From positions 37,914-101,913 of the IMG/VR virus record IMGVR_UViG_3300031251_000004: 64,000 nt of DNA. The stretch is one strand, 5' to 3'. The position numbers were made by a program, and so were the translations under genes. The stretch's first letter is position 1. Every line of letters begins with the position of its first letter. Origin of the DNA: a virus. The notes beneath the pieces are model-generated. The model made no database searches. It saw only the letters and a list, made by a program, of their open reading frames with translations, and had not been told where the DNA came from. Below are positions 54 through 38,931 of this stretch, one piece after another.

Positions 54-2192
54 ATGTCTCAAGGCACCGCAGTAACTGTAAATAACATAAACCTAGTCTC
101 TTTGAGTGGTGATATCACCGGCAACACCATTGACGGCTATGTTTCTTCTATTAGCGGTCCATCTCCAGTCATCGTTACACCTAACTCTTTACAATGGCTT
201 AGCTCGGTTACCTCTCCTACTTTAACTCAAGCTTCTTCAGCTAATCCCGGACAAAATCTAACCATTCAAGCTCAAGGTACTGGCGGAGGTGGAGCAGGCG
301 GCAATTTAATTCTTGCTTCTGGAACTTCATTATTTGGCAGTGCCGGCAATATCATCTTTCAATTAGGCGCTACGACAGGTTTGACTTTATTATCTACTGG
401 AACTTTGCAGTTTCCGGCTACCGCTACAGCAACCATCAATCAAGCTGCCTCTACCGGAGGCGCTACTAATTTAAGCATTACTGCCCAATCAGCTGGTGGC
501 GCTGGAGACAACGGTGGAGCTTTAGTATTGACTTCAGGAGCTTCCACTACAACTGGTACTTCTGGTAATGTTATTATTAATACGGCTACTCCAGGTGGTG
601 GTACTGCTGGTAATATCTTATTTCAGGTTAGTGGTACTACTCAGGCTTTCGTTAATAGCTTTGGTGTTGGTATCGGATCTACTCCTGGCACTTCTCCTAC
701 TATTACTTCTGGTTCTGGCGTTCCAACTTCCACCCAACCGACTGGCTCTCTTTATCTAAATACCAGCGGTTCAACAATTACCGGTGTTTATACCCGCACT
801 ACCAGCTGGCTACCAATCAACGCCTACACAGGCTTAATAGCTCCAATTACAGCTACCACTAATACTAATACCGTTGCAGTATACACTGTCGACAGCACTT
901 CTGGTAATGACGGAGTTATTCTTCATTTTCACACTGGTCCTACAACTTACGTAATGCCATCCCCTGCTCCCGGACGACAAATCATTATTCGAGATATTAC
1001 TGGTGCCATCGAAACTACCAATCAAACTGGCGGATATGTTACTGGCTCCGGAGCTACTAGCAACGTTATTTTTGTTGCTCCTCATGGTACCGAATCTTTT
1101 AATGGGAGTGCTGGCTATATATTAACTGGAGGTTCTACTTTTCACGTTACTAATAACTCAGCCGCCGTCACTTGCAGCACTGGTTTATTTACCACTGAAC
1201 TTGCACCCGGCATGAGCATCACATTTGGCGCTCAATCTGGTGTATCTTACGTAATCTCTTCCATCGGATCAGCAACTTCACTCACACTTACCTCTGTGTA
1301 TACAGGTACCACTAGTACTACCTCTTCTGCCACTATGAATAGTTTAGCTTACTATGCTAACTGGGGTACTCTTACTTTGACAAGTGATGGTACTAACTGG
1401 TTCGCTACTAGCAATAAACCCATGCGTGTTTACTTAACTGCTAACGGTACTTTTATCCCTTCTCCTGGCTGTACTGCTGCTTATTTAGTTGGCTGCGGAG
1501 GTGGTGGAGGTGGTGCTGGTGGTGGTGGAACTAGTACTTCTGGTGGTGGCGGAGGCGGCGGCGCACTTCAATCGATTATGATAACCACGCTTACTCCTAA
1601 TATTGCTAGTGGTTATACCGTGGTAATTGGTGCTGGTGGGACAGGTGGAGTCGCTAACTCAGCTGGCACTACTGGTAATCCAGGAAATAATACTTCTTTT
1701 GGTACCTTAGCATATTTTTATGGTGCCTCTGGTGGTAGCAGCAGTGGAGGTCTTTTTAATTCTCCCGGTGGTTTATTTTTTACTAATAGTGGTACAAATA
1801 TGTATTCTTCTTCTAGCGCTGCCGTTGGCACTGGATCTGCGTCTCTTGCGGCCGCAACTACTCAACTTCAAGGAAGTACATCGCCAGGATCTATTGCCAT
1901 GGGTGGGTCTGGCGGAGCAAATAGTATAAGCGGTGTTGCTGGAATGATCAATACCAGTTCGAATCTAGCAACGGCTTATGTTGCTGGTACCGGAGGCGGA
2001 AGCAACGGCGGTGGCGGCGGCGGTGCTGGACCTCAAGGCAACGGTGGCAACGCTGGTGCTGCCTCAAGTGTAGGATCATCGGCTTCCGCTAATACTGGAG
2101 CTGGAGGTGGCGGTGGTGGTATTCTTGCCAGTACTGGCACCGCTGGCGGAAACGGTGGAAGTGGATATCTCTATGTATATACTTGGATGTAA
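54..2192 (+). CDS. Glycine-rich tail-fibre adhesin, paralogue 1 of 4
   Basis: Probable receptor-binding fibre-tip protein. Four parts are visible: a short N-terminal GDITG-type fibre repeat (about residues 15-48); two related beta-rich modules carrying LTIQAQ and LSITAQS with GGxLxLxSG motifs (about 68-190); a central region with YTVDS, PGRQIIIRDITG and MNSLAYYANWGTLTL (about 270-460); and a C-terminal glycine-rich domain (about 465-712) with GGGGGGAGGGG runs ending in GSGYLYVYTW. The last part has the look of the phage glycine-rich tip domains, where polyglycine-II helices pack together and exposed loops bind the receptor; that functional link is family knowledge. AGGA lies 8 bases before the ATG. 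Three close paralogues follow in the same direction with 11-14 base gaps, so they are probably one transcript. Confidence 0.8.
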   Translation: MSQGTAVTVNNINLVSLSGDITGNTIDGYVSSISGPSPVIVTPNSLQWLSSVTSPTLTQASSANPGQNLTIQAQGTGGGGAGGNLILASGTSLFGSAGNIIFQLGATTGLTLLSTGTLQFPATATATINQAASTGGATNLSITAQSAGGAGDNGGALVLTSGASTTTGTSGNVIINTATPGGGTAGNILFQVSGTTQAFVNSFGVGIGSTPGTSPTITSGSGVPTSTQPTGSLYLNTSGSTITGVYTRTTSWLPINAYTGLIAPITATTNTNTVAVYTVDSTSGNDGVILHFHTGPTTYVMPSPAPGRQIIIRDITGAIETTNQTGGYVTGSGATSNVIFVAPHGTESFNGSAGYILTGGSTFHVTNNSAAVTCSTGLFTTELAPGMSITFGAQSGVSYVISSIGSATSLTLTSVYTGTTSTTSSATMNSLAYYANWGTLTLTSDGTNWFATSNKPMRVYLTANGTFIPSPGCTAAYLVGCGGGGGGAGGGGTSTSGGGGGGGALQSIMITTLTPNIASGYTVVIGAGGTGGVANSAGTTGNPGNNTSFGTLAYFYGASGGSSSGGLFNSPGGLFFTNSGTNMYSSSSAAVGTGSASLAAATTQLQGSTSPGSIAMGGSGGANSISGVAGMINTSSNLATAYVAGTGGGSNGGGGGGAGPQGNGGNAGAASSVGSSASANTGAGGGGGGILASTGTAGGNGGSGYLYVYTWM
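672..718 (+). repeat. 47-bp identical block shared by adhesin paralogues (copy 1)
   Basis: This block, encoding IGSTPGTSPTITSGS, is base-for-base identical to 2825-2871 in paralogue 2, and its first 35 bases recur in paralogue 3. Synonymous positions around it differ between the paralogues, so the identity is more than protein constraint requires. It suggests recent recombination or gene conversion between the tandem genes. Confidence 0.75.
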
Positions 2193-2203
2193 AGGTCAAA
2201 TAA

Positions 2204-4321
2204 ATGGCTCAAAGTAATATAATTTTATATGGTGATGTAATTGGTAATAGCGGTAGCAATACTGTTTATTCTATTACTGGTATTTCGCCAACCTCTACAG
2301 TTCCTGTTAGCGCCGCTACTTTGCAATGGTTAAATACAACAGCCTCTCCAATTTTAGGTCAATTTACTAACGCTTATACGGCAGGACAAAATCTTACCGT
2401 TCAAGCACAAGGAAGCAGTTTTACGGCTGCCAATGGCGGTAATTTAGTTTTAGCTTCTGGTACTACTTCTTCTGGGACCGTTGGTAATATTCAATTACAA
2501 CTCGGCAATACTACTGGTCTTACACTATTAGCTACTGGAACTTTGCAATTTGGAGCAGCTGTTACAGCTGGTATTACTCAATCCTCTGCTGCTGGCACTG
2601 GAACCAATCTAAACATTACTGCCCAATCAGCTGGCGGAACTGCCAATAACGGTGGAACTTTACTTCTCACTTCTGGGGCGTCTACTACAACTGGAACCTC
2701 TGGAAACGTTACTTTCAATACCAGCGCGCCCGGTTATGGTGGAACTATTAGTAATATTCTTTTCCAAATTAGCGGTGTCACTCAAGCTTTCGTTACTGGA
2801 CTGACTACTAATTCTGGTTTGGGCATCGGATCTACTCCTGGCACTTCTCCTACTATTACTTCTGGTTCTGGTACTCCATCTACCACTCAAACAAGCGGGT
2901 CTATTTATCTAAATACTAGCGGAGGTTTATATACTCGACAGAGCAGCATTTGGTCTCAGTTTGGAGCATCTAATATTAGTCAATTAACAGCCCCTATTTC
3001 ACAATTAGTTAATACTAATACTTCTCACGCCATTTATACAGTTGATTCGATTGGTAGTTATGATGGTGTCATTTTACATAACTATACGGCAAGTACTACT
3101 GGATATACATACGTTATGCCTGCACCTACAGCGGGACGTCAAATTGTTATTCGAGATATAACTGGAAGTATTGAAACCGCTAATACTGGCGGTTACATAA
3201 CAGGAACTGGTACCGGAAGTAAAGTAATTTTTATCGCCCCTCACGGAACAGAATCTTTTAACGGAAACTCTGGTTTTACTTTATCTGGTGGCTCTACTTT
3301 TAATGTCACAAATGGATCTGCCACTGTTACCGCTACCGGATCTTCATTTACTACTCAATTAGCTCCAGGTATGAGTATTACTTTTAGTGCTCAGTCTAGT
3401 ACATCCTATATAATTTCTGCGATTGGTTCCAATACTTCTTTGACACTTGCTACTAATTATACTGGTACTACTAGTACCACATCTGCTGCTACTATGAACA
3501 GCTTAGCTTACTATGCTAATTACGGTACAATCACACTATACAGCGATGGTACTAACTGGTTAGCTTCTAGTAATAAACCACTTCGTGCTTATTTAACTGG
3601 AAGTAGCGGAGCTTTCTTTATCTCTCCAGGCATTACTAACACCTTTATCACTGCTGCTGGCGGTGGCGGTGGTGGAGGCGGTGGAACTACTACCTGTGGC
3701 GGTGGTGGTGGCGGAGGATCCATTCAATCTACCACTAATATTACTGTAGCCGCTAATACTTCTTATACCGTGGCCATTGGTGCTGGTGGAGCAGCTGGAG
3801 CTACAGGAGCCGCTGGCGGAGCCGGTGGAACTACTTCTTTTGGTACCTTAGCTTATTTTTATGGTGCTTCTGGTGGAGGATTCAATTCTACCGCTACCAC
3901 TTACGCTTGTGGCGGGTATCCATTTACTAACAATGGTTCTACTAACGTCTACTCTTCCGTAGCATATGCAGGAACTGGAACAAACTCAATTAATGCCAGT
4001 ACCGGTATCACTTCTAGCAATTTACTTGGACAATTATCAATGGGCGGATCTGGGGCTTACACTGGCGTTACTTCTTTTGCTGGTTTGGCAAATGCTGTCG
4101 GTAATGGTTCTTATACTGGTGGAGCAGCTGGTGGTACTTTTGGTGGCGGTGGCGGTGGAGCCGGACCTCAAGGTGCTGGTGCAGCAGGCGGAGCCTCTGG
4201 AGCTGGCGGTTCTTCTGCTAATGCTAATACGGGAGCGGGTGGCGGTGGTGGTGGCGGTAATGCCAGCACTACTGGTGGAACAGGTGGAAGCGGATATCTA
4301 TATCTATTAATGTATATGTAA
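2204..4321 (+). CDS. Glycine-rich tail-fibre adhesin, paralogue 2 of 4
   Basis: Second member of the tandem adhesin family, with the same order of parts as the gene before it: N-terminal GDVIGN repeat, two TVQAQ/NITAQS beta modules, the YTVDS and PTAGRQIVIRDITG centre, MNSLAYYANYGTITL, then a glycine-rich C-terminus from about residue 460 ending GSGYLYLLMYM. The glycine-rich tips of the paralogues differ most in loop sequence between the glycine runs, as expected if they bind different receptors (inference). AAGG precedes the ATG by about 9 bases. A 47-base stretch is identical to one in paralogue 1, although the flanks have diverged. Confidence 0.8.
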   Translation: MAQSNIILYGDVIGNSGSNTVYSITGISPTSTVPVSAATLQWLNTTASPILGQFTNAYTAGQNLTVQAQGSSFTAANGGNLVLASGTTSSGTVGNIQLQLGNTTGLTLLATGTLQFGAAVTAGITQSSAAGTGTNLNITAQSAGGTANNGGTLLLTSGASTTTGTSGNVTFNTSAPGYGGTISNILFQISGVTQAFVTGLTTNSGLGIGSTPGTSPTITSGSGTPSTTQTSGSIYLNTSGGLYTRQSSIWSQFGASNISQLTAPISQLVNTNTSHAIYTVDSIGSYDGVILHNYTASTTGYTYVMPAPTAGRQIVIRDITGSIETANTGGYITGTGTGSKVIFIAPHGTESFNGNSGFTLSGGSTFNVTNGSATVTATGSSFTTQLAPGMSITFSAQSSTSYIISAIGSNTSLTLATNYTGTTSTTSAATMNSLAYYANYGTITLYSDGTNWLASSNKPLRAYLTGSSGAFFISPGITNTFITAAGGGGGGGGGTTTCGGGGGGGSIQSTTNITVAANTSYTVAIGAGGAAGATGAAGGAGGTTSFGTLAYFYGASGGGFNSTATTYACGGYPFTNNGSTNVYSSVAYAGTGTNSINASTGITSSNLLGQLSMGGSGAYTGVTSFAGLANAVGNGSYTGGAAGGTFGGGGGGAGPQGAGAAGGASGAGGSSANANTGAGGGGGGGNASTTGGTGGSGYLYLLMYM
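2825..2871 (+). repeat. 47-bp identical block shared by adhesin paralogues (copy 2)
   Basis: Identical over all 47 bases to the copy in paralogue 1. It lies at the same place in the protein, between the second beta module and the GSxYLN segment. Confidence 0.75.
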
Positions 4322-4335
4322 TGAGGAATGAGTAA

Positions 4336-6426
4336 ATGAATATAAATGGCATAATGGTAGCTGGTGATCTTGCAGGAAGTAGCGACTCTAATCTCGTTAT
4401 TTCTATTAGCGGAACATCTCCAATCAACATAACTCCTAATGCATTACAGTGGGCAATTAGTACTACTATCCCTATTTTAGGTCAAATTGCTTCAGCCACG
4501 GCTGCTGGACAAGCTCTAACAATTCAAGCACAAGGTAGTACTGGATCTGGTACCAATGGTGGTAACTTAGTATTAGCTTCTGGAGCCTCTGCATCTGGAA
4601 CTGCAGGAAGCGTCCAATTACAATCTGGTATTATCACTAATTTATCTTTAACTTCTACCGGTTCTTTGCAATTTGGTTCTACTATTACTTCACCTACCCT
4701 TACTCAAGCAACTGCTTCGGCTGCTGGCGGCAATTTAAGCATTACTGCTCAATCAGCTGGTGGAACTACTAATAATGGAGGCTCTTTAGTTTTGACTTCT
4801 GGGTCTTCCTCTACCACCGGTATTTCTGGAAACGTCACTATCAATACAGCTACACCAGGTGGTGGTGGAACAGCAGGTAATATCCTCTTTCAGGTTAGCG
4901 GCACGACTCAAGCTTTCGTTACCACTAACGCTAGCGGAGCTGGGTTTGGCATCGGATCTACTCCTGGCACTTCTCCTACTATTACCAGTGGAACCGGAAC
5001 CCCATCGTCTACCGAACCTAATGGGTCTCTTTATCTAAATGTTGCCGGATCAAGTAGTTCGGTTATTTATACTCGTCAAAATGGAACTTGGGCTTCTGTG
5101 TCTACCGCTGGTATACAAATTATTCCTTTAACCGAAACAATTACCACTAATTCTTCTCACAGTATTTATACTGTCGATAGTACAGGTGGAGGATCTGACG
5201 GTATTATTTTACACAATTATACTGCTAGCACTACTGGATACACATATATTATGCCTGCTCCAACTGCTGGACGCCAAATTATTATTCGTGACATAACTGG
5301 TGGCATTGAAACAGCCAATACGGGTGGATATATTACTGGTACTGGAACATCCAGTAAAGTTATCTTTATTGCCCCTCATGCTGTCGAATCATTTAATGGC
5401 AGTTCTGGATATGCTTTAAGCGGATCTGCTTTTCACTTTACCAACAACTCTGCTACTGTCACAGCTACCAGTTCTTTATTTACCACAGAATTGGCTCCCG
5501 GAATGAGCATTGTACCAGTAGGGGGTACTGCAACTACTACCGCCTCATACATAATTTCTTCCATTTCTAATGCAACTACTCTAACTCTCACTACCAATTA
5601 CACTGGGAATACTAGTACCGCAGGCACCGCTACTATGAATAGCTTAGCTTACTATGCTAACTACGGTACACTAACACTCATTAGTAATGGGACTAACTGG
5701 TTTGCTTCTAGCAATAAACCATTACGCGCTTATATAACTGGTAGTACCGGAACTTTCATTCCTTCTCCTGGAAGCACGAGCGCTACACTTATTGGTTGCG
5801 GTGGTGGTGGTGGTGGTGCTAATAACGGAGGCGTATCCTCCTCTACTGGTGGTGGTGGTGGTGGAGCTCTACAATCCGTTATAAATACTAGTATTACTCC
5901 AAATACCGCCTATTCAATTACTATTGGAGCGGGTGGCGGAAACGCCGGTGGAACCGGAGGTATTACATTCTTTGGTAGCTCAGCGACTTTTAATGGAGGT
6001 TCTGGTGGTGGAGGGGGCGCGGGGGGCACCTGTGGTTCCGGTGGATATCCAGTTAGCAATGGATCAGCAACTAATATTTATAGTGATGCTTTATCTGGTT
6101 TAGGTGTATCATCTATTGCTGCAGCCACAGCTATAACACCAACCAATATGCCAGGAATGATGGGCATGGGTGCGGGATCATTTTTAGCCGCTAATACACC
6201 CGGATTTAATAATATAATGGGTAATGGTTCTTATTCTGGTGGGACTACCAACAACGGTGGCGGTGGTGGTGCAGGACCACAAGGAAATGGTGGTAATGGT
6301 GCTAGTGCCGGTACTGGCGGTTCAGCAGCCGCAAATAGTGGTGCTGGTGGCGGTGGAAACTATAGTACTCCCGGTTCTGCTGGTGCTGGTGGTTCAGGTT
6401 ATCTTTATATTCTTATGCCAATGTAA
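4336..6426 (+). CDS. Glycine-rich tail-fibre adhesin, paralogue 3 of 4
   Basis: Third member of the adhesin array, 696 aa. It keeps the GDLAGS N-terminal repeat, the TIQAQ and SITAQS modules, the GSLYLN segment, YTVDSTGGGSDG, PTAGRQIIIRDITG, MNSLAYYANYGTLTL and a glycine-rich C-terminal domain ending GSGYLYILMPM. GAGGA lies upstream of the ATG. It shares the first 35 bases of the near-identical block found in paralogues 1 and 2. Role inferred as a distal fibre or tip protein; whether the four products sit on one virion or are expressed alternatively cannot be read from the sequence. Confidence 0.8.
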   Translation: MNINGIMVAGDLAGSSDSNLVISISGTSPINITPNALQWAISTTIPILGQIASATAAGQALTIQAQGSTGSGTNGGNLVLASGASASGTAGSVQLQSGIITNLSLTSTGSLQFGSTITSPTLTQATASAAGGNLSITAQSAGGTTNNGGSLVLTSGSSSTTGISGNVTINTATPGGGGTAGNILFQVSGTTQAFVTTNASGAGFGIGSTPGTSPTITSGTGTPSSTEPNGSLYLNVAGSSSSVIYTRQNGTWASVSTAGIQIIPLTETITTNSSHSIYTVDSTGGGSDGIILHNYTASTTGYTYIMPAPTAGRQIIIRDITGGIETANTGGYITGTGTSSKVIFIAPHAVESFNGSSGYALSGSAFHFTNNSATVTATSSLFTTELAPGMSIVPVGGTATTTASYIISSISNATTLTLTTNYTGNTSTAGTATMNSLAYYANYGTLTLISNGTNWFASSNKPLRAYITGSTGTFIPSPGSTSATLIGCGGGGGGANNGGVSSSTGGGGGGALQSVINTSITPNTAYSITIGAGGGNAGGTGGITFFGSSATFNGGSGGGGGAGGTCGSGGYPVSNGSATNIYSDALSGLGVSSIAAATAITPTNMPGMMGMGAGSFLAANTPGFNNIMGNGSYSGGTTNNGGGGGAGPQGNGGNGASAGTGGSAAANSGAGGGGNYSTPGSAGAGGSGYLYILMPM
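4951..4985 (+). repeat. 35-bp partial copy of the shared adhesin block (copy 3)
   Basis: Identical to the first 35 bases of the copies in paralogues 1 and 2, then diverges at synonymous and non-synonymous positions. The break within the block marks a possible recombination end point. Confidence 0.7.
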
Positions 6427-30674: not shown

Positions 30675-31244
30675 TTATTTTACCCTATCCAATATTTTTA
30701 AATCCATTCCAGCCCCAACCAACGCATCCATCAATCCCCTATATTCTTCACTCTCCCTAATAAATGCAAGCTCTCCATAATTATTAATTGGTGCATTGAA
30801 TGATTTTATAATTGTCATATAATTTGGTGGAAGTGGCGTGGAACGATCAATGTTCGCATTTGGTATGAGTTTTAGAAACTTATACTTATTAACATCTATC
30901 GGGTTTGCCAATATTGCAATGCTGGTAATTCTCTTTTGTTTTGCCACAATTATTGTTTGAAAGAACCAATCTAAATAATCTTTGAGGATTTGAGGATCGC
31001 TTGACAATTGTTGTGATATTTTTTTTATGTTTTGTATTTCCCAGCTTTTTGATGGAGCCGTATGATTGAACTTGAATGTGTAATCAACGCCGTAATGGTT
31101 TTTGTATAATTTAACCCAATAAGCGATCACATGGACGGGACGCCAGTCTTTTGTTGGAAGGGTTTCAATTTCTGGAAATTGAGCGAACCATTTTTGGTAT
31201 GCGGTGCTGACGGCGTCGGTTAGTTGTGGGTCTATGTTTTTCAT
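30675..31244 (-). CDS. Hypothetical protein of the replication region
   Basis: 189 aa, rich in aromatic residues: VHVIAYWVKLYKNHYGVDY, LKDYLDWFFQTIIVAKQKR, and a YRGLMDALVGAGMDLKIL end. Largely alpha-helical; no ATPase or zinc motif. It sits between UvsW-like helicase and loader genes, so a DNA-replication accessory role is possible but not shown. Confidence 0.5.
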   Translation of the reverse strand: MKNIDPQLTDAVSTAYQKWFAQFPEIETLPTKDWRPVHVIAYWVKLYKNHYGVDYTFKFNHTAPSKSWEIQNIKKISQQLSSDPQILKDYLDWFFQTIIVAKQKRITSIAILANPIDVNKYKFLKLIPNANIDRSTPLPPNYMTIIKSFNAPINNYGELAFIRESEEYRGLMDALVGAGMDLKILDRVK

Positions 31245-31480
31245 AGTAATTGTAATAACTCAGGTTTCATCAATCGTTCGATTTCATTTTTTACTTCATC
31301 TGTAAGTTCTGACCGCTTTGCAATAAAATCCCATACACTTGATTTTCTTTGTATCAAATCAATTGGACACGCTACTGATTGATGTAGATATTGAGCTAAT
31401 GGATTATTTATAACAATATCATTTCCATCATTTACAAATAATTCAATTTCAACGTGCTTTACCATTATTGTTTTATTCAT
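31241..31480 (-). CDS. Hypothetical protein
   Basis: 79 aa with a beta-strand start (TIMVKHVEIELFVNDGNDIV) and a helical end (TDEVKNEIERLMKPELLQLL). Coupled by ATGA overlaps on both sides. Not recognised. Confidence 0.5.
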   Translation of the reverse strand: MNKTIMVKHVEIELFVNDGNDIVINNPLAQYLHQSVACPIDLIQRKSSVWDFIAKRSELTDEVKNEIERLMKPELLQLL

Positions 31481-32946
31481 AACATTTCCTTGCTAGGACT
31501 TACTTCGAACCCCACCTCACTACTATATATCTTAAATCTTTTCTTGCTATGGTCGCGTAAATACTTTATTTGGTCGAAGAAATCGCAAATTGCAACATGT
31601 TTTTTGCCGGGGTATGGTCTAATACATCTGCCAACTTTTTGAAGGCATCTGATTGCACTAGCCCCACCACCAGCATTCACCAGCGCTGATATCTTTGGAA
31701 GATCAACGCCCAAATCAAATATGACTGATGCCACTATCACATCTATCTTGCCATCATTGAAATCTTGCATTACTTCTAATCGTCGTTCCAGCTTATCATT
31801 GCCATACAATAAATCACATTTTACGCCAGCGTTTTGAAGCATCTCTAATAAAATCTTGCCGTGCACTATCTGCTTGAACAATACAAGTGGAGCATAACCT
31901 TTTTCCAAAAACTTTTTTGTATATTCAACAACTAAATTATTTCTAACTTCATTCTCAACTATATACTGTTTGTATATTGCCTGATATGTTTTATCTTGAA
32001 TATGCATCTTTGGAACCGTTATGAACTTTATATATGGTTTTGCCAATATACCTTTTTCAATTAGTTCTGATGCACTGATATTTATAATCTGTTCTCCAAG
32101 AACGCCATTGATTAATAAATCACTATTATCACCACGGAACGGCGTTCCGCTTAATCCATATATGCGTTCAGGATTTATGTTTTTATATATTGCTGATATT
32201 GTAGCTGTTGTAGATACATGACACTCATCTAACATATGAATCTTATATTCTTTCAATGCTCGAAGAATATCTACTTTAGTATCACCATTGAACTTTTCTT
32301 TTTCATCAAACTCATCTGATTCCAATAACATCTTTTTTGTATTTATATCTAATGCTTTTCCGATTGTCCAAATTGATGCAATAGTAATTCGTTTTATATC
32401 ACAATCACCATTACCGATCCTACCTATTGGTTCATCAAATATCTCGGTGAATGTTTTATGAAACTGATCTAACAAATTTAATCCAATAACATAGACGATT
32501 GTTGGTTTGTTGAACTTTGCCGTCATCATTGCTGCAACAAGTGTTTTACCCGAAGCAGTGCAAGCACGAATGATACCTTTATCGTGAAGTGTTGTTGCTT
32601 CGAGGATACGATTTTGGTAATCGCGGGGAACCTTGTCGAGTAGTTTTAGACGATCGGTTATGATGAGCTCATTGCCAGCAATAGATTTTATTCTATTATC
32701 GGTTATGATATATGTGGCTTGTTTTCGTTTTAGCCATTGTTCAACTTTTGGTAGGAGCCCTGACATAAATACATTTTGCTTATTTAGGAGGAATGTTATA
32801 CCGTGCCAGCCGTTTTTGTATGCCGGAGTGTATTCAACGCCAGCCAATTTATATGAAAGAAAATTACGAAGCTGATTGATGATTGGAGTTTCATCTTCGT
32901 TGGCGGTGATTTTGCAGTATTTATTGTCGAGAATTGTAATGATCAT
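31477..32946 (-). CDS. UvsW-like superfamily 2 helicase
   Basis: 489 aa. An N-terminal domain (1-95) is followed by two helicase lobes: PRDYQNRIL (Q-motif-like), Walker A CTASGKT (129-135), DECH (240-243), YGLSGTPFRGD, then in lobe 2 VLFKQIVHGK, VASVIFDLGVDLP and motif VI QKVGRCIRP. This fits T4 UvsW-type helicases that remodel branched DNA in recombination-dependent replication. First gene of the replication block; no clear Shine-Dalgarno or promoter is seen upstream. Confidence 0.82.
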   Translation of the reverse strand: MIITILDNKYCKITANEDETPIINQLRNFLSYKLAGVEYTPAYKNGWHGITFLLNKQNVFMSGLLPKVEQWLKRKQATYIITDNRIKSIAGNELIITDRLKLLDKVPRDYQNRILEATTLHDKGIIRACTASGKTLVAAMMTAKFNKPTIVYVIGLNLLDQFHKTFTEIFDEPIGRIGNGDCDIKRITIASIWTIGKALDINTKKMLLESDEFDEKEKFNGDTKVDILRALKEYKIHMLDECHVSTTATISAIYKNINPERIYGLSGTPFRGDNSDLLINGVLGEQIINISASELIEKGILAKPYIKFITVPKMHIQDKTYQAIYKQYIVENEVRNNLVVEYTKKFLEKGYAPLVLFKQIVHGKILLEMLQNAGVKCDLLYGNDKLERRLEVMQDFNDGKIDVIVASVIFDLGVDLPKISALVNAGGGASAIRCLQKVGRCIRPYPGKKHVAICDFFDQIKYLRDHSKKRFKIYSSEVGFEVSPSKEML

Positions 32947-32980: not shown

Positions 32981-33226
32981 TTATTTCTGCTGATCTTTAC
33001 GAAACTTAAATCTGGACGCATTAGCTTCACGCTTTAATTTCTGCTCCTCAGTTTCTTGTATTGGATCTGGCGGTGTATAAGGCTTTTCAGTAAGCGCTTG
33101 ATAGATTGACATAGGTATGGTTATAGGAAAAAATAATACATATAGCCCCACTCCTATGAATGCAAGTTTTACAACCGCGCTATAATCACTTCCGCTATTC
33201 AACCATTTAGTTATTGGATTTTTCAT
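32981..33226 (-). CDS. Small membrane protein next to endolysin (possible lysis accessory)
   Basis: 81 aa with one hydrophobic segment (about residues 19-45: VKLAFIGVGLYVLFFPITIP plus a shorter run) and a charged, Lys/Glu/Arg-rich C-terminus. The gene overlaps a zinc-ribbon gene and lies two genes after the endolysin, so a holin or holin-associated role is possible. A single transmembrane segment and an absent signal make this uncertain. Confidence 0.5.
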   Translation of the reverse strand: MKNPITKWLNSGSDYSAVVKLAFIGVGLYVLFFPITIPMSIYQALTEKPYTPPDPIQETEEQKLKREANASRFKFRKDQQK

Positions 33227-33612
33227 TTCAATATCAATAACGCTTCTAATCTTTCAATACTCTGATTATCACCCCATCTCGCATTGAAGGCTTTTACTCT
33301 TTCATCACATCTATTCTTTTGTTCTACGAGCCCCTCAATTATCCTCATTAATTCTTTCTTCTCTTTTGATTTCTTATCATCATCTATTTTTATAGAAATA
33401 TGACATTTAGGACAATTATATGTTTTACCTACTGGTGTAGATTGAGACCATGTACCAGATCCAGTGGTACCAACTAAATATCCTGAGCCTACTGGATATG
33501 TTGACGGATATGTTGATGTAGGAATATACAAGCTTTGGGAAGTAGCCAATTGTGCCGAATCATCTTTTGATTCCGATTCAATAAGCGGATACGAACATTG
33601 AGGACAATTCAT
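33223..33612 (-). CDS. Zinc-ribbon protein with Ser/Thr/Gly linker
   Basis: 129 aa. Two distant pairs, CPQC at 3-6 and CPKC near 68, can form one zinc ribbon around a Ser/Thr/Tyr/Gly-rich insert (SLYIPTSTYPSTYPVGSGY). A charged helix follows (KSKEKKELMRIIEGLVEQ). Its ATG overlaps the endolysin stop (TAATG). Role unknown. Confidence 0.55.
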   Translation of the reverse strand: MNCPQCSYPLIESESKDDSAQLATSQSLYIPTSTYPSTYPVGSGYLVGTTGSGTWSQSTPVGKTYNCPKCHISIKIDDDKKSKEKKELMRIIEGLVEQKNRCDERVKAFNARWGDNQSIERLEALLILK

Positions 33613-34712
33613 TATATATGCAACACATTCTTCGCAAAATTAACTAGAACGCTCAGAACACTATTCCAAAAATTAGGTGGTAATGTAGGATGAGGCGGTC
33701 TTGCTGGTGAAGGCGCAACTGCATCTGGGTTTGGCGTTGGATTAACTGGGTTAATACCTACTAATGATACCATTGCTGGTAATGCTTGTGATACCGCAGG
33801 TGATGACGCTAATGATGCTACTGCACCTTGTAGAACCGTCTTTGTTGCCGGTCCAGCAATACCATCTGCTGTAAGCCCGTGTGATGATTGAAATGCTTCG
33901 ATGGCTAATATGGTTTTTGGTCCGTTGTTGCCGTCTTCGGTTAGTGGCGTTCCTGCTCCTCCGAGTAGATTTAATGCGTGTTGAACATCGAGCATTGTGT
34001 TGAGTGGTGTGCCTGCTGGTGCGGGTGGCGTTTGCGGCGCCGTATTGACCGTAGGAACGCTTACTCCGGTGAGTTGAGGGGTTTGTACTCCCCACAGACT
34101 GAGGTCAATTGCAAGGTCGGTATCGACATTTACGCCATTTGGAAGCTTTGCGGTTCCGCCACTGTTTTGCCATAACACATATGAGTTCCAAGGCTTTGGA
34201 ATCATTGGGCTATTTGCTTGATATGAGGCAATCCATAGCGGATAGTCTGCGAATTGTGCAGGATTTCCGATAGTTTGCATAAAATTAGGATATGTATAAA
34301 TTGGTATTTTTTTACCACTCAACCGCTCATATTCTTGAAGATATGTAAGCGTCCATTCAACAATTTGTTTTGCTGAGCACCCCCACTTATTCCAATCATT
34401 TTCCACGGGCCACTCCATATCCAGGCTCGCTAGCTCTCCTGCGGCAGCCTTAAAATGAAGTTGTGCTTGAATCACTGGGTCTCGTGTAGGCTGTGAAGGA
34501 ATTGTTGGCAACGGAAACGCAAAATTATATGCCATCGGCAGCATTCCTGCGTTTTTTGTTCCTGTTATATTTTTAGTGTAGTTTATATCTGTTCCGCTGT
34601 TTCCAACGGCACATCTACTGATTATGAATTTTGTTCCTTGTTGTGCAAGAAGATCAAATTGAACCACTCCTTGAATAACTGAAATATCGTATCCCTTGTA
34701 AAAATTAGTCAT
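33612..34712 (-). CDS. Endolysin: GH25 muramidase with peptidoglycan-binding domain
   Basis: 366 aa enzyme that cuts peptidoglycan glycan strands to release progeny. The GH25 domain (1-210) has GYDISVIQG with D9 and SLDMEW with D98 and E100, matching the catalytic positions of this family. A PG_binding_1 domain lies at about 238-296 (LDVQHALNLLGG, GPKTILAIEAFQSSHGLTADG, GPATKTVLQ). A Pro-rich linker leads to a C-terminal amphipathic hydrophobic helix (FWNSVLSVLVNFAKNVLHI). No signal peptide, so export needs a holin. AAAAGGA lies before the ATG. Confidence 0.92.
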   Translation of the reverse strand: MTNFYKGYDISVIQGVVQFDLLAQQGTKFIISRCAVGNSGTDINYTKNITGTKNAGMLPMAYNFAFPLPTIPSQPTRDPVIQAQLHFKAAAGELASLDMEWPVENDWNKWGCSAKQIVEWTLTYLQEYERLSGKKIPIYTYPNFMQTIGNPAQFADYPLWIASYQANSPMIPKPWNSYVLWQNSGGTAKLPNGVNVDTDLAIDLSLWGVQTPQLTGVSVPTVNTAPQTPPAPAGTPLNTMLDVQHALNLLGGAGTPLTEDGNNGPKTILAIEAFQSSHGLTADGIAGPATKTVLQGAVASLASSPAVSQALPAMVSLVGINPVNPTPNPDAVAPSPARPPHPTLPPNFWNSVLSVLVNFAKNVLHI

Positions 34713-34774
34713 TTATTGTTTCCTTTTACCATTGGTATAATTTTTTCCAATTTTTCATTTTATATAACTATATG

Positions 34775-36151
34775 TTATTGTTTTCTACGATCTACTACAT
34801 TTCCGCCTACAAACTTTCCGAATGTACTTGTTTTGGCAGCAATCTTGTCTTTGATTTTTTGTGCATCAGTTATCGTTGTATTTTTTCCTGTGTTGAGCGC
34901 TACATTTAGATTCCGGGCAGTCTCTTTTTCCTTCACAACATTTGAAAGATTTTTTATCTCTTCTGTTAGCTGCGCGGTACGTTCTGCCGGAATACCAAGA
35001 CCGGAAAAGAATGAATAAATCTTGACAACATCTCGTGGCTCATCTATCTCATAAATACCTCTAAATATCTCAGGGGTTCCACATTGTTCTGTTAACAGCG
35101 CATTGGCATAATTTATTGCCACTGCTGGAATACTTTTCCAGACGGTTTTATTTGCTGCCACAATGAACCCTACATATTTACTTTCTTTTATGTTAAATCC
35201 GCTTGCAAGTAGATTATTATTCATATTTGAAATTATAGCCTCTGCGATCGAAGTCTCCGAACTATAATCCTCGATTTCCATTGACCCATATGTAGAATAC
35301 CCCGAGGAATCAATTAGAATTTTAAGCCACTCCATACTGTCTAGACTTTTAATTGATGATGGTGATGATGACAACATATTGAACATATCTAATGGTTCAA
35401 CTATTGCTTTATTTGCAATTGAATAAAAATCCATTTGACCAACATTAGAATAAATTGCCTCTATTCGCGCATTATCTACCAATATAATGTTAGCTACTTT
35501 TTTATTCTGTAAATCTTTTGATAGTACCGCAAGCGTTTCCATAGCATTTGATTTTGCTTTAAGATCTTCCGAATGCATAGGTAAGACGCCTATAATTATA
35601 ATAGGCTTCCCTAATTCATTTAGAATATTGACTAATACCTCACAGCTGCCTGCTCCGCTACCACCACCTAATGATGAGCATAAAACGAACACTTGTGCAT
35701 CCGCTAACTGTTTACTAACCATTTCTTTTATGGCATCAGCATTGGCTTCCGTTGCCTCTCGACCAATACTAAGCGTCCTTGCGGCTCCACCAATAGAATT
35801 ATACTCCAGTAATAATTTATTACTTTCGGGAACATCTATAAATTTAAGATCATTCTGCGTTGTATTCAAAACTATGCAATCATAGTTATATTCACGAAAT
35901 TGTTGGGCTAATTTACTTCCTGCTTGTCCCGATCCAATTATTCCAAAATTAATTGATCGCTCTTTCTTTACCGGTTTTACACTCATTGGTTCCTCTTGTT
36001 TTACTATATCAATATCCTTAGTTTTTTCTGCTAATTTTGCTTTTAATCTTGCAAGTTTTTCTTGATCTATATCCATAGCTGGTTTCTCATTTGTTATGTC
36101 ATCCACAATAGTTTCTTCTACTACATTTAGTCTTACTGTTTGTGCAACCAT
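34775..36151 (-). CDS. FtsZ/tubulin-superfamily GTPase
   Basis: 458 aa from the ATG at 36151 with GGAAG 8 bases upstream; an ATG at 36190 with GAGGA further off is an alternative. An extension (1-65) is predicted helical and charged. The GTPase core has FGIIGSGQAGSKLA (T1), LLEYNSIGGAA-R...IGREA (T3), the tubulin signature SSLGGGSGAGS (159-169, T4) and ILVDNARI (T6). The T7-like loop reads VGQMDFYSIA: the first acidic residue of NxDxxD is kept and the second is replaced by Ser. The family forms dynamic filaments; phage members position DNA. No ParR/TubR-like partner is obvious beside it. Confidence 0.85.
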   Translation of the reverse strand: MVAQTVRLNVVEETIVDDITNEKPAMDIDQEKLARLKAKLAEKTKDIDIVKQEEPMSVKPVKKERSINFGIIGSGQAGSKLAQQFREYNYDCIVLNTTQNDLKFIDVPESNKLLLEYNSIGGAARTLSIGREATEANADAIKEMVSKQLADAQVFVLCSSLGGGSGAGSCEVLVNILNELGKPIIIIGVLPMHSEDLKAKSNAMETLAVLSKDLQNKKVANIILVDNARIEAIYSNVGQMDFYSIANKAIVEPLDMFNMLSSSPSSIKSLDSMEWLKILIDSSGYSTYGSMEIEDYSSETSIAEAIISNMNNNLLASGFNIKESKYVGFIVAANKTVWKSIPAVAINYANALLTEQCGTPEIFRGIYEIDEPRDVVKIYSFFSGLGIPAERTAQLTEEIKNLSNVVKEKETARNLNVALNTGKNTTITDAQKIKDKIAAKTSTFGKFVGGNVVDRRKQ

Positions 36152-36239
36152 TTTAGTTCTTCCTTTTATCCATATGAATCCGCTGCTCATAATAGTTTAG
36201 TCCTCTAACTCTTTTCCGCCAACACATACAATATTATTT

Positions 36240-37202
36240 TTAATTTATGAACCATGGATTATTTTTATACCATTGAACTGTCCTGGCAATACCATCTTTA
36301 AATTTAACTTGTGGCTTCCAATTTAGTTCATTTTTGATCTTATCACAATTTACCGAATAACGAAAATCATGACCGCTGCCACGAGGATCAGTTATATGTT
36401 CGACTAAGCTATGACCACCACCCATAGCATTACATACTTCTTGAACAACTTCTATATTAGAATACTCTTGATTTGATGATATGTTATATATTGTATTTAC
36501 TTTATCTGATCCTAATATAGATAGTAATGCATCACAATTATCATCAACATAAGTCCATTCACGAAGAAATGAACCATTACCATACACTGGTATTTTTTGA
36601 TTATTTATAATTGATTTTATAATAACTGGAATGAGTTTTTCTGATTGCCTTGGTCCGTAATTGTTAGAACAACGAGTTATAACATATGGTAATCCAAAAG
36701 AATTGTTAGCGGATTTGATTATTAATTCGCCTGATGCCTTGGAAGCTGAGTATGGATTTTTTGGATCCAATGGCGCGTCTTCTGTCCAAGGCAGATCATT
36801 TGATGATTTCAATGAACCCATAACCTCATCTGTGCTAGTATATACTAATTTTTTTACTCCATATTTTACACAAGCATTTACAATTATTTGGGTTCCAAGC
36901 ACGTTGGAACGAATGAACTCGTTAGGATTTTTTAACGAATCATCAACGAAGCTACAAGCAGCAGCATGCAGAACAATCTCAGGCTTTACATACTCAAATA
37001 TCCTATTCATAATATGTTCATCACATATATCTGCAAGATAGAATGAATGGCTTTTATGTTCGTAGATATTATTTAGCAATGATGATTTAGATATTCTATC
37101 TATACTAGCTATATCATATGGTGTTTTATCATAAATTGCTTTACGAATAAAATTAGAAATTATAAATCCACAGGAACCTGTGATTAGTAATCGTTGTTTC
37201 AT
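36240..37202 (-). CDS. rmlB: dTDP-glucose 4,6-dehydratase-like NAD-dependent enzyme
   Basis: 320 aa extended SDR. NAD-binding loop GSCGFI (9-14, replacing the usual GGAGFIG), ADIC near 58, catalytic T124-D125-E126 in YTSTDEVMG, and Y151/K155 in YSASKASGE. RCSNNYGPRQ, then EKLIPVIIKS and REWTYVDDNC are RmlB hallmarks. It would make dTDP-4-keto-6-deoxyglucose, the precursor of rhamnose and other deoxysugars. RmlA, RmlC and RmlD are not in the window, so the host would have to supply the rest. Followed by glycosyltransferase genes in the same operon. Confidence 0.85.
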   Translation of the reverse strand: MKQRLLITGSCGFIISNFIRKAIYDKTPYDIASIDRISKSSLLNNIYEHKSHSFYLADICDEHIMNRIFEYVKPEIVLHAAACSFVDDSLKNPNEFIRSNVLGTQIIVNACVKYGVKKLVYTSTDEVMGSLKSSNDLPWTEDAPLDPKNPYSASKASGELIIKSANNSFGLPYVITRCSNNYGPRQSEKLIPVIIKSIINNQKIPVYGNGSFLREWTYVDDNCDALLSILGSDKVNTIYNISSNQEYSNIEVVQEVCNAMGGGHSLVEHITDPRGSGHDFRYSVNCDKIKNELNWKPQVKFKDGIARTVQWYKNNPWFIN

Positions 37203-38038
37203 TTTTTACTCTTGTATAAGTTATAATTAGGATTGCTTACATACAATGTATGATTTTCTTTTATTGTATTGCCCCATTTTTTACGGAATAGATTTACATT
37301 ATGTTGCATAAATAATCGATTTGTTTTTGTGGTTTTCAATGTTGCGGATTCTTCGTGAAAAATATTTGTTTCACCACAATATATAACTCTTTTATTCAAA
37401 TTGTATCTGATTGCAAGGCATAAGTCAATATCGTCAAAACACCAAATAAATTGTTCATCAAAACCATTCAGCCCGCTTTTATTTGTCCTGCATGCATTTT
37501 CATATAACCCAGCTCGGACCAAAAGAACCGCTCCCGTGCAGGCATCGAACTCTCTGTTCTTTCGTGCATGTGCATCTTCCATCTCACCTAATCGATAGTG
37601 CCATGGAAGCATGTCTTTATTCTTGTCCCATTCTATTCCCGCATGTTGGAGTTTTCTTGTATCTGTATAATTTAGTTTTGCTCCAACAATACCAACGCTA
37701 CCATCATTATCCATAATTCTAATCATATTTTTTATTGATGAGAAGTCATTAAAAATAATATCATTATTCAATAATAGAATATAATCGTTTTCCTTCGGTG
37801 ATGCTTCCTTGAATAATACATTACATCCTTCTGCGAAGTTTTGTAAATTATTCTTCCATTGTATTGGAATTATATTAGAATTATTTAATCCATTTAGATA
37901 TTCAATAGAACCATCATTAGAACCGTTCTCTTTTACTAACCATTTATATTCAATATTATTTAATGATTTGATTAGTGTTGGTGCAAGCTTTTCTAATTTA
38001 GATTTGCCGTTCCAAGATAGTGTGAGTATATGTAGCAT
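37199..38038 (-). CDS. Family 2 glycosyltransferase (rhamnosyltransferase-like)
   Basis: 279 aa from the ATG at 38038, whose A is shared with the endonuclease stop (TAATG); a TTG upstream is less likely. GT-A fold start HILTLSWNGKSKLEKLAP, KENGSNDGSIEYL, LLLNNDIIF with a DxD-like NND, and the acceptor-side FDEQFIWCFDDIDLCLAIR pattern of rhamnosyltransferase-type GT2 enzymes. Its start overlaps the rmlB operon by ATGA. Likely transfers a sugar from a nucleotide donor to a phage or host glycan (target inferred). Confidence 0.78.
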   Translation of the reverse strand: MLHILTLSWNGKSKLEKLAPTLIKSLNNIEYKWLVKENGSNDGSIEYLNGLNNSNIIPIQWKNNLQNFAEGCNVLFKEASPKENDYILLLNNDIIFNDFSSIKNMIRIMDNDGSVGIVGAKLNYTDTRKLQHAGIEWDKNKDMLPWHYRLGEMEDAHARKNREFDACTGAVLLVRAGLYENACRTNKSGLNGFDEQFIWCFDDIDLCLAIRYNLNKRVIYCGETNIFHEESATLKTTKTNRLFMQHNVNLFRKKWGNTIKENHTLYVSNPNYNLYKSKK

Positions 38039-38931
38039 TATATTTTTTTCCAAGTTCTACGCTCTATTATATCACATATAGTGGCAAATGAAACGTGATA
38101 TAAGTGCATAAGTTCCGTTTTTGTAATTTCTCTTGTAGCAAATTTTTCTCTTATTATAAGAACATCTTCTTTTTTTAATTTTAGTCCTTTACCAGAAGCA
38201 GATTCGGACATTTTTTCCCGTACCTCGTCTGAACGTTTCTGCCCTCTTAACTTAAGAACTCTTTTTTCAATTGTTTCTGGTGATTGTTTAATACCATACA
38301 TTGGATTATTTTCACCCATATTTGCTACGGACATTTTTTTACGCGTTTCCTCCGACTTCGGAGGAGCTGGTCTGCCAGACAATGTTTTAGATATTTTTTC
38401 TTTTGTTTCATCTGTATGATGTTTACCATAAAATGGATGGTTCTCACCTTTTACCGCATCAGATATTTTTTTCTTTTGTTCTTCGGTACAAATATACCCT
38501 TTATGTGCGTCAGATATATTTTTCTTTTGCTCTTCTGTTCTTTTTTTACCAAAATTTGGATTATTTTCACCTGTTATACCAAGCCAGTGCGCTGATTTTT
38601 TATTAGACTCTTTAATTTTTTCAATAGTTTCCAACGAATGTTTACCGCGTGAACCACCTTTCCTTAAATTATATCCAAATTCAGGATTATCGGATTTATA
38701 TTTATCAATAAAATAATCTTCCCAATAATTTGCTGTTTCCTGCGTTCCGCATAACATTATGAATTCATAATAAAAATTATTTTTTCCATACAAATCAATC
38801 GCTCTTTGAAGATGCGTACAACCTGTATAGCCACCATACCATCTATCTTTTATAGATTGCCATGTTTGTCCAATATATACTTTAGTATTAGCGTTATTTT
38901 TTAATATATAAATAATATTACATATGTTCAT
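38038..38931 (-). CDS. GIY-YIG homing endonuclease with NUMOD3 repeats
   Basis: 297 aa. The N-terminal GIY-YIG nuclease (1-95) has IIYILKN, KVYIG, the catalytic Arg in IKDRW (R30) and the metal glutamate in WEDYFIDKY (E71). Several NUMOD3 DNA-binding repeats follow (about 100-235) with patterns such as GENNPNFGKKRTEEQKKNIS and GENHPFYGKHHTDETK. A C-terminal helix-turn-helix (about 255-293) reads ITKTELMHLYHVSFATICDI. It is free-standing, inserted between a membrane-anchored protein gene and a glycosyltransferase gene. Confidence 0.88.
   Translation of the reverse strand: MNICNIIYILKNNANTKVYIGQTWQSIKDRWYGGYTGCTHLQRAIDLYGKNNFYYEFIMLCGTQETANYWEDYFIDKYKSDNPEFGYNLRKGGSRGKHSLETIEKIKESNKKSAHWLGITGENNPNFGKKRTEEQKKNISDAHKGYICTEEQKKKISDAVKGENHPFYGKHHTDETKEKISKTLSGRPAPPKSEETRKKMSVANMGENNPMYGIKQSPETIEKRVLKLRGQKRSDEVREKMSESASGKGLKLKKEDVLIIREKFATREITKTELMHLYHVSFATICDIIERRTWKKI

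What the first reader, a model, noticed from the sequence alone, without database searches (positions are those of the whole stretch)
34775..36151. Phage tubulin/FtsZ-like GTPase with an altered T7 loop
The nucleotide-binding side is intact (GSGQAGS, GGGSGAG), but the T7-like loop keeps only one of the two acidic positions of NxDxxD, and a charged 65-residue extension precedes the core. It may form filaments with unusual turnover. It lies with lysis and sugar genes rather than with a known DNA-segregation partner.
Basis: partly seen in the sequence, partly recalled or inferred. Interest (0 to 1): 0.65.

Follow-up and report, generated by a model that had tools for sequence, protein, structure and literature searches.

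The report
TubZ-like filament GTPase of jumbo phages
A giant bacterial virus carries a tubulin-like protein whose GTP-binding and GTP-splitting parts are all intact, not damaged as first thought; it belongs to a little-described family in viruses that lack both known partner systems for phage tubulins, so it probably builds filaments that position something, most likely viral DNA, inside the infected cell.

Summary
The gene is real: 34775-36151 (-), 458 aa, with an alternative upstream start at 36190. It encodes a tubulin/FtsZ-superfamily GTPase. The loop reads L-D284-S-M-E287, and both acidic positions are kept: they align with FtsZ D209/D212 and with the DxxE or DxxD of TubZ, PhuZ and CetZ-like proteins in 42 of 42 sequences. 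The N-terminal extension is real and shared by the whole family. By sequence and predicted fold the core is closest to plasmid TubZ (Foldseek E 1e-26), not PhuZ. The scan found a well-supported clade of 15 such proteins (100/100), all from uncultured virus contigs of up to 459 kb. The long contigs lack chimallin, the phiKZ-type RNA polymerase and an integrase; no tubR was detected. In 12 of 12 informative loci the next conserved gene downstream is a UvsW-type helicase that opens a replication block; sugar and lysis neighbours are more variable. Best reading: an ordinary dynamic TubZ-like polymer used in lytic infection to position phage DNA or particles, with the extension as a partner-binding tether. 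GTPase and filament chemistry rest on homology; cargo and tether are inferred. New variant of a known kind; moderate interest.

The parts
34775..36151 (-). TubZ-like tubulin/FtsZ-superfamily GTPase, 458 aa; alternative in-frame start at 36190 gives 471 aa (residue numbers in this report are for the 471-aa form; subtract 13 for the 458-aa form)
   Evidence: AlphaFold2 core pLDDT above 90, pTM 0.73
35957..36151 (-). N-terminal extension (residues 14-78): acidic motif ETIVDDI, charged helix 43-64 (KLARLKAKLAEK), then basic linker MSVKPVKKER leading into the core
   Evidence: Homologous extension in 15 of 15 clade members; D30, D31 and K50 at least 90%, L46 and L49 invariant; helix predicted at pLDDT 60-68, rest disordered
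35912..35953 (-). First beta-strand and T1 loop (INFGIIGSGQAGSK)
   Evidence: G88 and G91 invariant in 36 sequences
35645..35674 (-). T4 loop SLGGGSGAGS, phosphate binding
   Evidence: G176, G177, G179, G181 invariant in 36 sequences
35330..35344 (-). T7 (catalytic) loop L-D284-S-M-E287, both acidic residues present
   Evidence: Acidic at both columns in 42 of 42 sequences; HMMER aligns it with FDASEF of TubZ chain 4ei7 and with FtsZ NVDFADV
34778..34987 (-). C-terminal helix H11 (about residues 402-432) and basic tail ending STFGKFVGGNVVDRRKQ
   Evidence: Helix 402-432 in the model; S455, F457, D467, R469, K470 invariant in the clade; tail net charge +3 to +7
31477..32946 (-). UvsW-type helicase, the most constant downstream neighbour of the family
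   Evidence: phrog_16 E 2e-74; UvsW_N (just under its cut-off) and ResIII/Helicase_C; next conserved gene downstream in 12 of 12 loci with enough sequence
30675..31244 (-). Conserved gene of unknown function that follows the helicase in the family
   Evidence: Homologues in 11 loci; no Pfam, PHROG or PDB match
36240..37202 (-). Nucleotide-sugar epimerase, usual upstream neighbour
   Evidence: phrog_540 E 9e-81; directly upstream in most but not all family members
33612..34712 (-). GH25 endolysin with peptidoglycan-binding domain, next gene downstream in the window
   Evidence: PF01183 E 2.6e-25; variable neighbour, present in 5 of the loci examined

Best explanation
It is a TubZ-like, GTP-dependent filament-forming protein of a jumbo phage that is not of the nucleus-forming kind. 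Subunits bind GTP through T1 and T4 and stack head to tail. The T7 loop of one subunit (D284 and E287) completes the active site on its neighbour and drives hydrolysis and turnover, as in TubZ, FtsZ and alpha-tubulin (chemistry inferred from conserved residues and fold). [quoted passage not shown] The flexible N-terminal extension, with its acidic motif and short charged helix, probably binds a partner (inferred). The filament most likely positions or separates replicating phage DNA, or moves particles, during lytic infection (inferred from the replication block downstream and from what TubZ and PhuZ do). Shown here: family, intact active-site residues, predicted fold, clade, conserved extension, context. 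Not shown: polymerisation, cargo, partner.
For: Domains PF00091 and PF22453 above their cut-offs. Best PDB sequence match is TubZ/RepX, E 1.4e-16 alone and 2.8e-32 with the family profile. The AlphaFold2 model is confident in the core, and its top 22 Foldseek matches are Bacillus TubZ structures, before CetZ and FtsZ. Catalytic and nucleotide residues are conserved in 36-42 sequences. Clade of 15 with 100/100 support, apart from PhuZ. Strong purifying selection. UvsW helicase downstream in 12 of 12 informative loci, followed in the window by a DnaC-like loader and DnaB. No integrase in seven contigs, with the control ringing, which argues for a lytic rather than an integrated-prophage life.
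Against: No experiment. No tubR-like gene or iteron array beside the gene, so the known DNA-coupling route of TubZ is missing. Neighbouring genes can be shared for reasons of expression timing only, and the sugar and membrane genes upstream are also often conserved. The contigs are uncultured and may be incomplete. The host is unknown.
Confidence: 0.62

Rival explanations
1. It is a TubZ of a TubRZC-type partition system that keeps a pseudolysogenic, plasmid-like form of the phage in dividing cells; the adaptor is a protein unrelated in sequence to known TubR.
For: Closest core is plasmid TubZ; plasmid TubZ genes and the phage G TubZ gene are directly preceded by a 90-105 aa ORF; Clostridium phage c-st uses TubZ this way (PMC7950403); pseudolysogeny has been proposed for jumbo phages (PMC7824862).
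Against: No tubR-like ORF found in the 406 kb relative or the window's record, no iteron array beside the gene, no integrase. The gene lies downstream of sugar genes and next to a lytic-type replication block.
Confidence: 0.17
2. It mimics or poisons the host division protein FtsZ: it co-assembles with or blocks FtsZ to stop division and enlarge the cell for a large burst.
For: Same superfamily; phages are known to target FtsZ (own knowledge).
Against: All features of an active polymer are kept and under selection; TubZ-like C-terminal domain and fold rather than FtsZ; known phage FtsZ inhibitors are small unrelated proteins (own knowledge).
Confidence: 0.08
3. It organises envelope or glycan work: a membrane- or wall-linked cytoskeleton working with the sugar-modifying genes, the membrane-anchored coiled-coil protein and the endolysin next to it.
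For: The epimerase, a glycosyltransferase and a protein with an N-terminal hydrophobic segment usually lie just upstream; N-terminal helices tether some FtsZ to membranes (PMC12583498).
Against: L054, L057 and L059 keep the tubulin without that upstream cassette intact next to it, and the endolysin is variable. The extension's conserved helix is charged with low mean hydrophobicity (-0.04 to -0.01 in the window's nearest relatives), unlike a typical membrane-inserting helix.
Confidence: 0.1
4. It is a PhuZ that centres a phage nucleus.
For: Weak, partial match to PHROG 4733 'tubulin PhuZ' (E 1.6e-6).
Against: PhuZ is a separate 100/100 clade. Chimallin and the phiKZ-type RNA polymerase subunit are absent from 406-459 kb relatives while positive controls ring. 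The C-terminal tail is basic, not an acidic knuckle.
Confidence: 0.03

Closest known systems
TubZ of Bacillus plasmids (2xka/2xkb from B. thuringiensis, 4ei7 from B. cereus)
   Same: Same fold with best Foldseek and profile matches, TubZ-like C-terminal domain, DxxE-type T7 loop as in 4ei7, long C-terminal helix followed by a tail
   Different: 18-22% identity; 65-78 residue N-terminal extension; no tubR next to it, no iterons found beside it; carried by large phages, not plasmids
PhuZ of Chimalliviridae (phiKZ gp39 and relatives)
   Same: Jumbo-phage tubulin, same superfamily, both acidic T7 residues
   Different: 15-17% identity, separate clade, no chimallin or phiKZ-type RNA polymerase in the phages, basic instead of acidic C-terminal tail, TubZ-like C-terminal domain, long N-terminal extension
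TubZ-like gp138 of Bacillus phage G
   Same: Tubulin of a giant phage without chimallin; TubZ-like
   Different: 22-23% identity, no N-terminal extension, preceded by a 98-aa ORF in the tubR position; not in the same clade
A0A6J5RW92, 'FtsZ Cell division GTPase', uncultured Caudovirales phage
   Same: 51% identical over nearly the whole length: a member of the same family, already deposited
   Different: Database name says FtsZ; no description of the family was found in the paper library

Membership tests
Tubulin/FtsZ superfamily GTPase | GTPase domain with T1, T4 GGG[ST]G, T5/T6 and T7 acidic pair | tested here: met
   PF00091 E 1.5e-15; residues conserved, T7 acidic pair in 42 of 42 sequences
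TubZ (protein family) | TubZ-like C-terminal domain and TubZ fold | tested here: met
   PF22453 31.4 bits over cut-off 26; top 22 PDB fold matches are TubZ
TubRZC partition system | tubR gene directly upstream | tested here: not met
   Upstream neighbour is an epimerase; six plasmid/phage tubR-position ORFs find nothing convincing in G002, the window or the rest of its record (best E 0.025)
TubRZC partition system | tubC iterons | tested here: inconclusive
   None in 33000-38500; a distant site was not excluded
PhuZ | Groups with PhuZ in a tree | tested here: not met
   PhuZ is its own 100/100 group; the new clade is elsewhere
PhuZ / Chimalliviridae | Genome encodes chimallin and the phiKZ-type RNA polymerase | tested here: not met
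   Absent from 406, 435, 428 and 459 kb relatives; phiKZ, Ea35-70 and Aphrodite1 controls ring
PhuZ | Acidic C-terminal knuckle | tested here: not met
   Tail net charge +3 to +7, conserved DxRK end
FtsZ | Sequence and fold closest to FtsZ | tested here: not met
   TubZ ranks above FtsZ in both searches (2.8e-32 against 1.5e-17)
Dynamic cytoskeletal polymer | GTP-dependent filaments and GTPase activity | not testable with these tools
   Needs purified protein; no dimer or filament prediction offered

The most novel reading that the evidence does not exclude
A third kind of phage tubulin system: a dynamic TubZ-type filament in non-nucleus-forming jumbo phages that positions the replicating genome without a phage nucleus and without TubR, coupling to its cargo through the family-specific N-terminal extension.
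Probability: 0.35. Interest if true: 0.65.

Novelty: new variant of a known kind. Interest (0 to 1): 0.42.

Why it matters
Characterised phage tubulins fall into two uses: centring a phage nucleus (PhuZ) and partitioning a plasmid-like prophage (TubZ of c-st). A conserved, selected tubulin family in 400 kb-class phages that lack chimallin, the phiKZ-type polymerase and a recognisable TubR would show that phages organise the infected cell with tubulin more widely, and it offers a ready target (the conserved extension) for finding how such filaments hold cargo.

Tried and rejected
Altered T7 loop: rejected by several alignments (pairwise and profile against PDB, A2, A4, and 42 sequences). PhuZ/nucleus: rejected. 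Strong conservation of the extension relative to the core in L003 (91% against 79%): looked like selection, but synonymous divergence is also low there (dS 0.49 against saturated), so a recombination breakpoint near the extension/core boundary is the simpler cause; the case for selection on the extension rests on the 40-54% identical relatives instead. Extension as a shared targeting tag: no second protein with it in the 406 kb relative, the window or the rest of its record. Membrane-binding helix: the HeliQuest-style D score is driven by net charge and mean hydrophobicity is near zero in the conserved helix, so not supported, but not excluded. First structure prediction with 4 near-identical sequences was poor (pLDDT 43) and was not used. 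The family was not found in cultured phages or in bacterial/archaeal genome contigs, so no host could be inferred.

Full report
CHECK OF THE OBSERVATION. In the family alignment the near-invariant M14 (36151) lies at or next to the first methionine of the more distant relatives, and an AAGGAA sequence precedes it, so 36151 is the likelier start. The 13 extra codons are kept in frame in the three closest relatives, so a dual start is possible. The protein matches PF00091 (E 1.5e-15) and PF22453, TubZ-like C-terminal domain, both over their cut-offs. The window lies in a 101.9 kb virus record.

THE T7 LOOP. The loop reads S-L-D284-S-M-E287-W. Pairwise and profile alignments place D284 and E287 on the FtsZ pair (E. 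coli NVDFADV, M. jannaschii NVDFADV) and on FDASEF of TubZ 4ei7. In 42 tubulin-family sequences both columns are acidic in all 42. The DxxE form is invariant in the 15 clade members and also occurs in other viral tubulins, a Cytobacillus plasmid tubulin and a haloarchaeal one; PhuZ and E. coli FtsZ have DxxD. Glu is the catalytic residue at this place in alpha-tubulin (PMC13394414), and E200A in the catalytic loop was used to perturb hydrolysis in Clostridium TubZ (PMC5322520). The loop is therefore canonical, and nothing in it suggests unusual turnover.

THE FAMILY. A single-sequence search found three near relatives. A profile including plasmid TubZ found eleven more of 40-54% identity, on contigs of up to 458,729 bp. 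The 15 form one clade with 100/100 support, apart from PhuZ, plasmid TubZ and phage G (several outside branches are long, so the deeper placement is unsure). An AlphaFold2 model from 36 sequences has core pLDDT above 90 and pTM 0.73. Its best 22 PDB matches are Bacillus TubZ, before CetZ and FtsZ. A deposited uncultured-phage protein named FtsZ is 51% identical, so members were already in databases; no description of the family was found in the papers searched.

EXTENSION AND TAIL. All 15 carry an N-terminal extension of roughly 36-78 residues. Shared features are an acidic motif around D30-D31, a short helix with invariant L46 and L49, and, in most, a basic linker into the core. The model shows helix 43-64 with disorder on both sides. 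No other protein in the 406 kb relative, the window or the rest of its record carries it. The C-terminal tail is basic and ends in a conserved D-x-R-K, unlike the acidic knuckle described for phiKZ TubZ/PhuZ (PMC3678025).

CONTEXT. In the window the gene sits between a nucleotide-sugar epimerase and a GH25 endolysin. Across the family the epimerase/glycosyltransferase cassette is usually but not always upstream, and the endolysin is variable. The next conserved gene downstream is a UvsW-type helicase in all 12 loci with enough sequence, at distances from -1 to about 3,600 bp, followed by a conserved gene of unknown function; in the window a DnaC-like loader and DnaB follow further on. The gene is thus at the junction of an envelope/sugar block and a replication block, and the replication side is the more constant. 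Chimallin and the phiKZ-type RNA polymerase subunit are absent from four relatives of 406-459 kb while phiKZ, Ea35-70 and Aphrodite1 give hits. No integrase was found, with the control ringing. No tubR was found by searching with six tubR-position ORFs, and no iterons lie near the gene. A published comparison links jumbo-phage tubulin to multisubunit RNA polymerase (PMC7824862); this family looks like an exception to that, on the one polymerase subunit tested.

MECHANISM. Shown: superfamily membership, intact catalytic and nucleotide residues, TubZ-like predicted fold, selection, conserved extension. Inferred: GTP-driven head-to-tail filaments with turnover through the neighbour's T7 loop; a role of the extension as a partner tether; phage DNA (or particles) as cargo in a lytic cycle. 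My confidence is about 0.85 for an active polymerising GTPase and about 0.45 for phage DNA as cargo.

VERDICT. The protein is sound and of interest as a member of an under-described phage tubulin family, but the feature that made it a finding, the altered loop, is a misreading.

Noticed in passing
L001:5828-7912 and L002:5830-7917: The epimerase next to the tubulin carries an in-frame insertion of about 375 aa in two relatives (in L001 it starts with Cys and ends VHN before Ser, with a DADG endonuclease-like motif): an intein, absent from the window and L003.
   Followed up: partly
L051:5487-8168 and L053:5657-8326: The UvsW-type helicase carries an insertion of about 400 aa; in L051 it begins with Cys after GSGK and ends HN before Thr: another intein, in the helicase P-loop.
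   Followed up: partly
window 35957-36151 against L003: The tubulin's extension is much less diverged at synonymous sites than its core between the window and L003, suggesting a recombination breakpoint near the extension/core boundary.
   Followed up: partly
window 31477-32946: The window's UvsW helicase is only about 42% identical to that of relatives whose tubulin is 79-96% identical, suggesting replacement of the helicase gene.
   Followed up: no
window 54-6426: Three tandem ORFs of about 700 aa each match tail-fibre families: probable duplicated tail-fibre genes.
   Followed up: no
window 38038-38931: GIY-YIG/NUMOD3 homing-type endonuclease gene inside the sugar cassette; a related gene sits on the other side of the tubulin in L003.
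   Followed up: no
window 30675-31244: Conserved protein of unknown function after the helicase in 11 loci, with no Pfam, PHROG or PDB match.
   Followed up: partly
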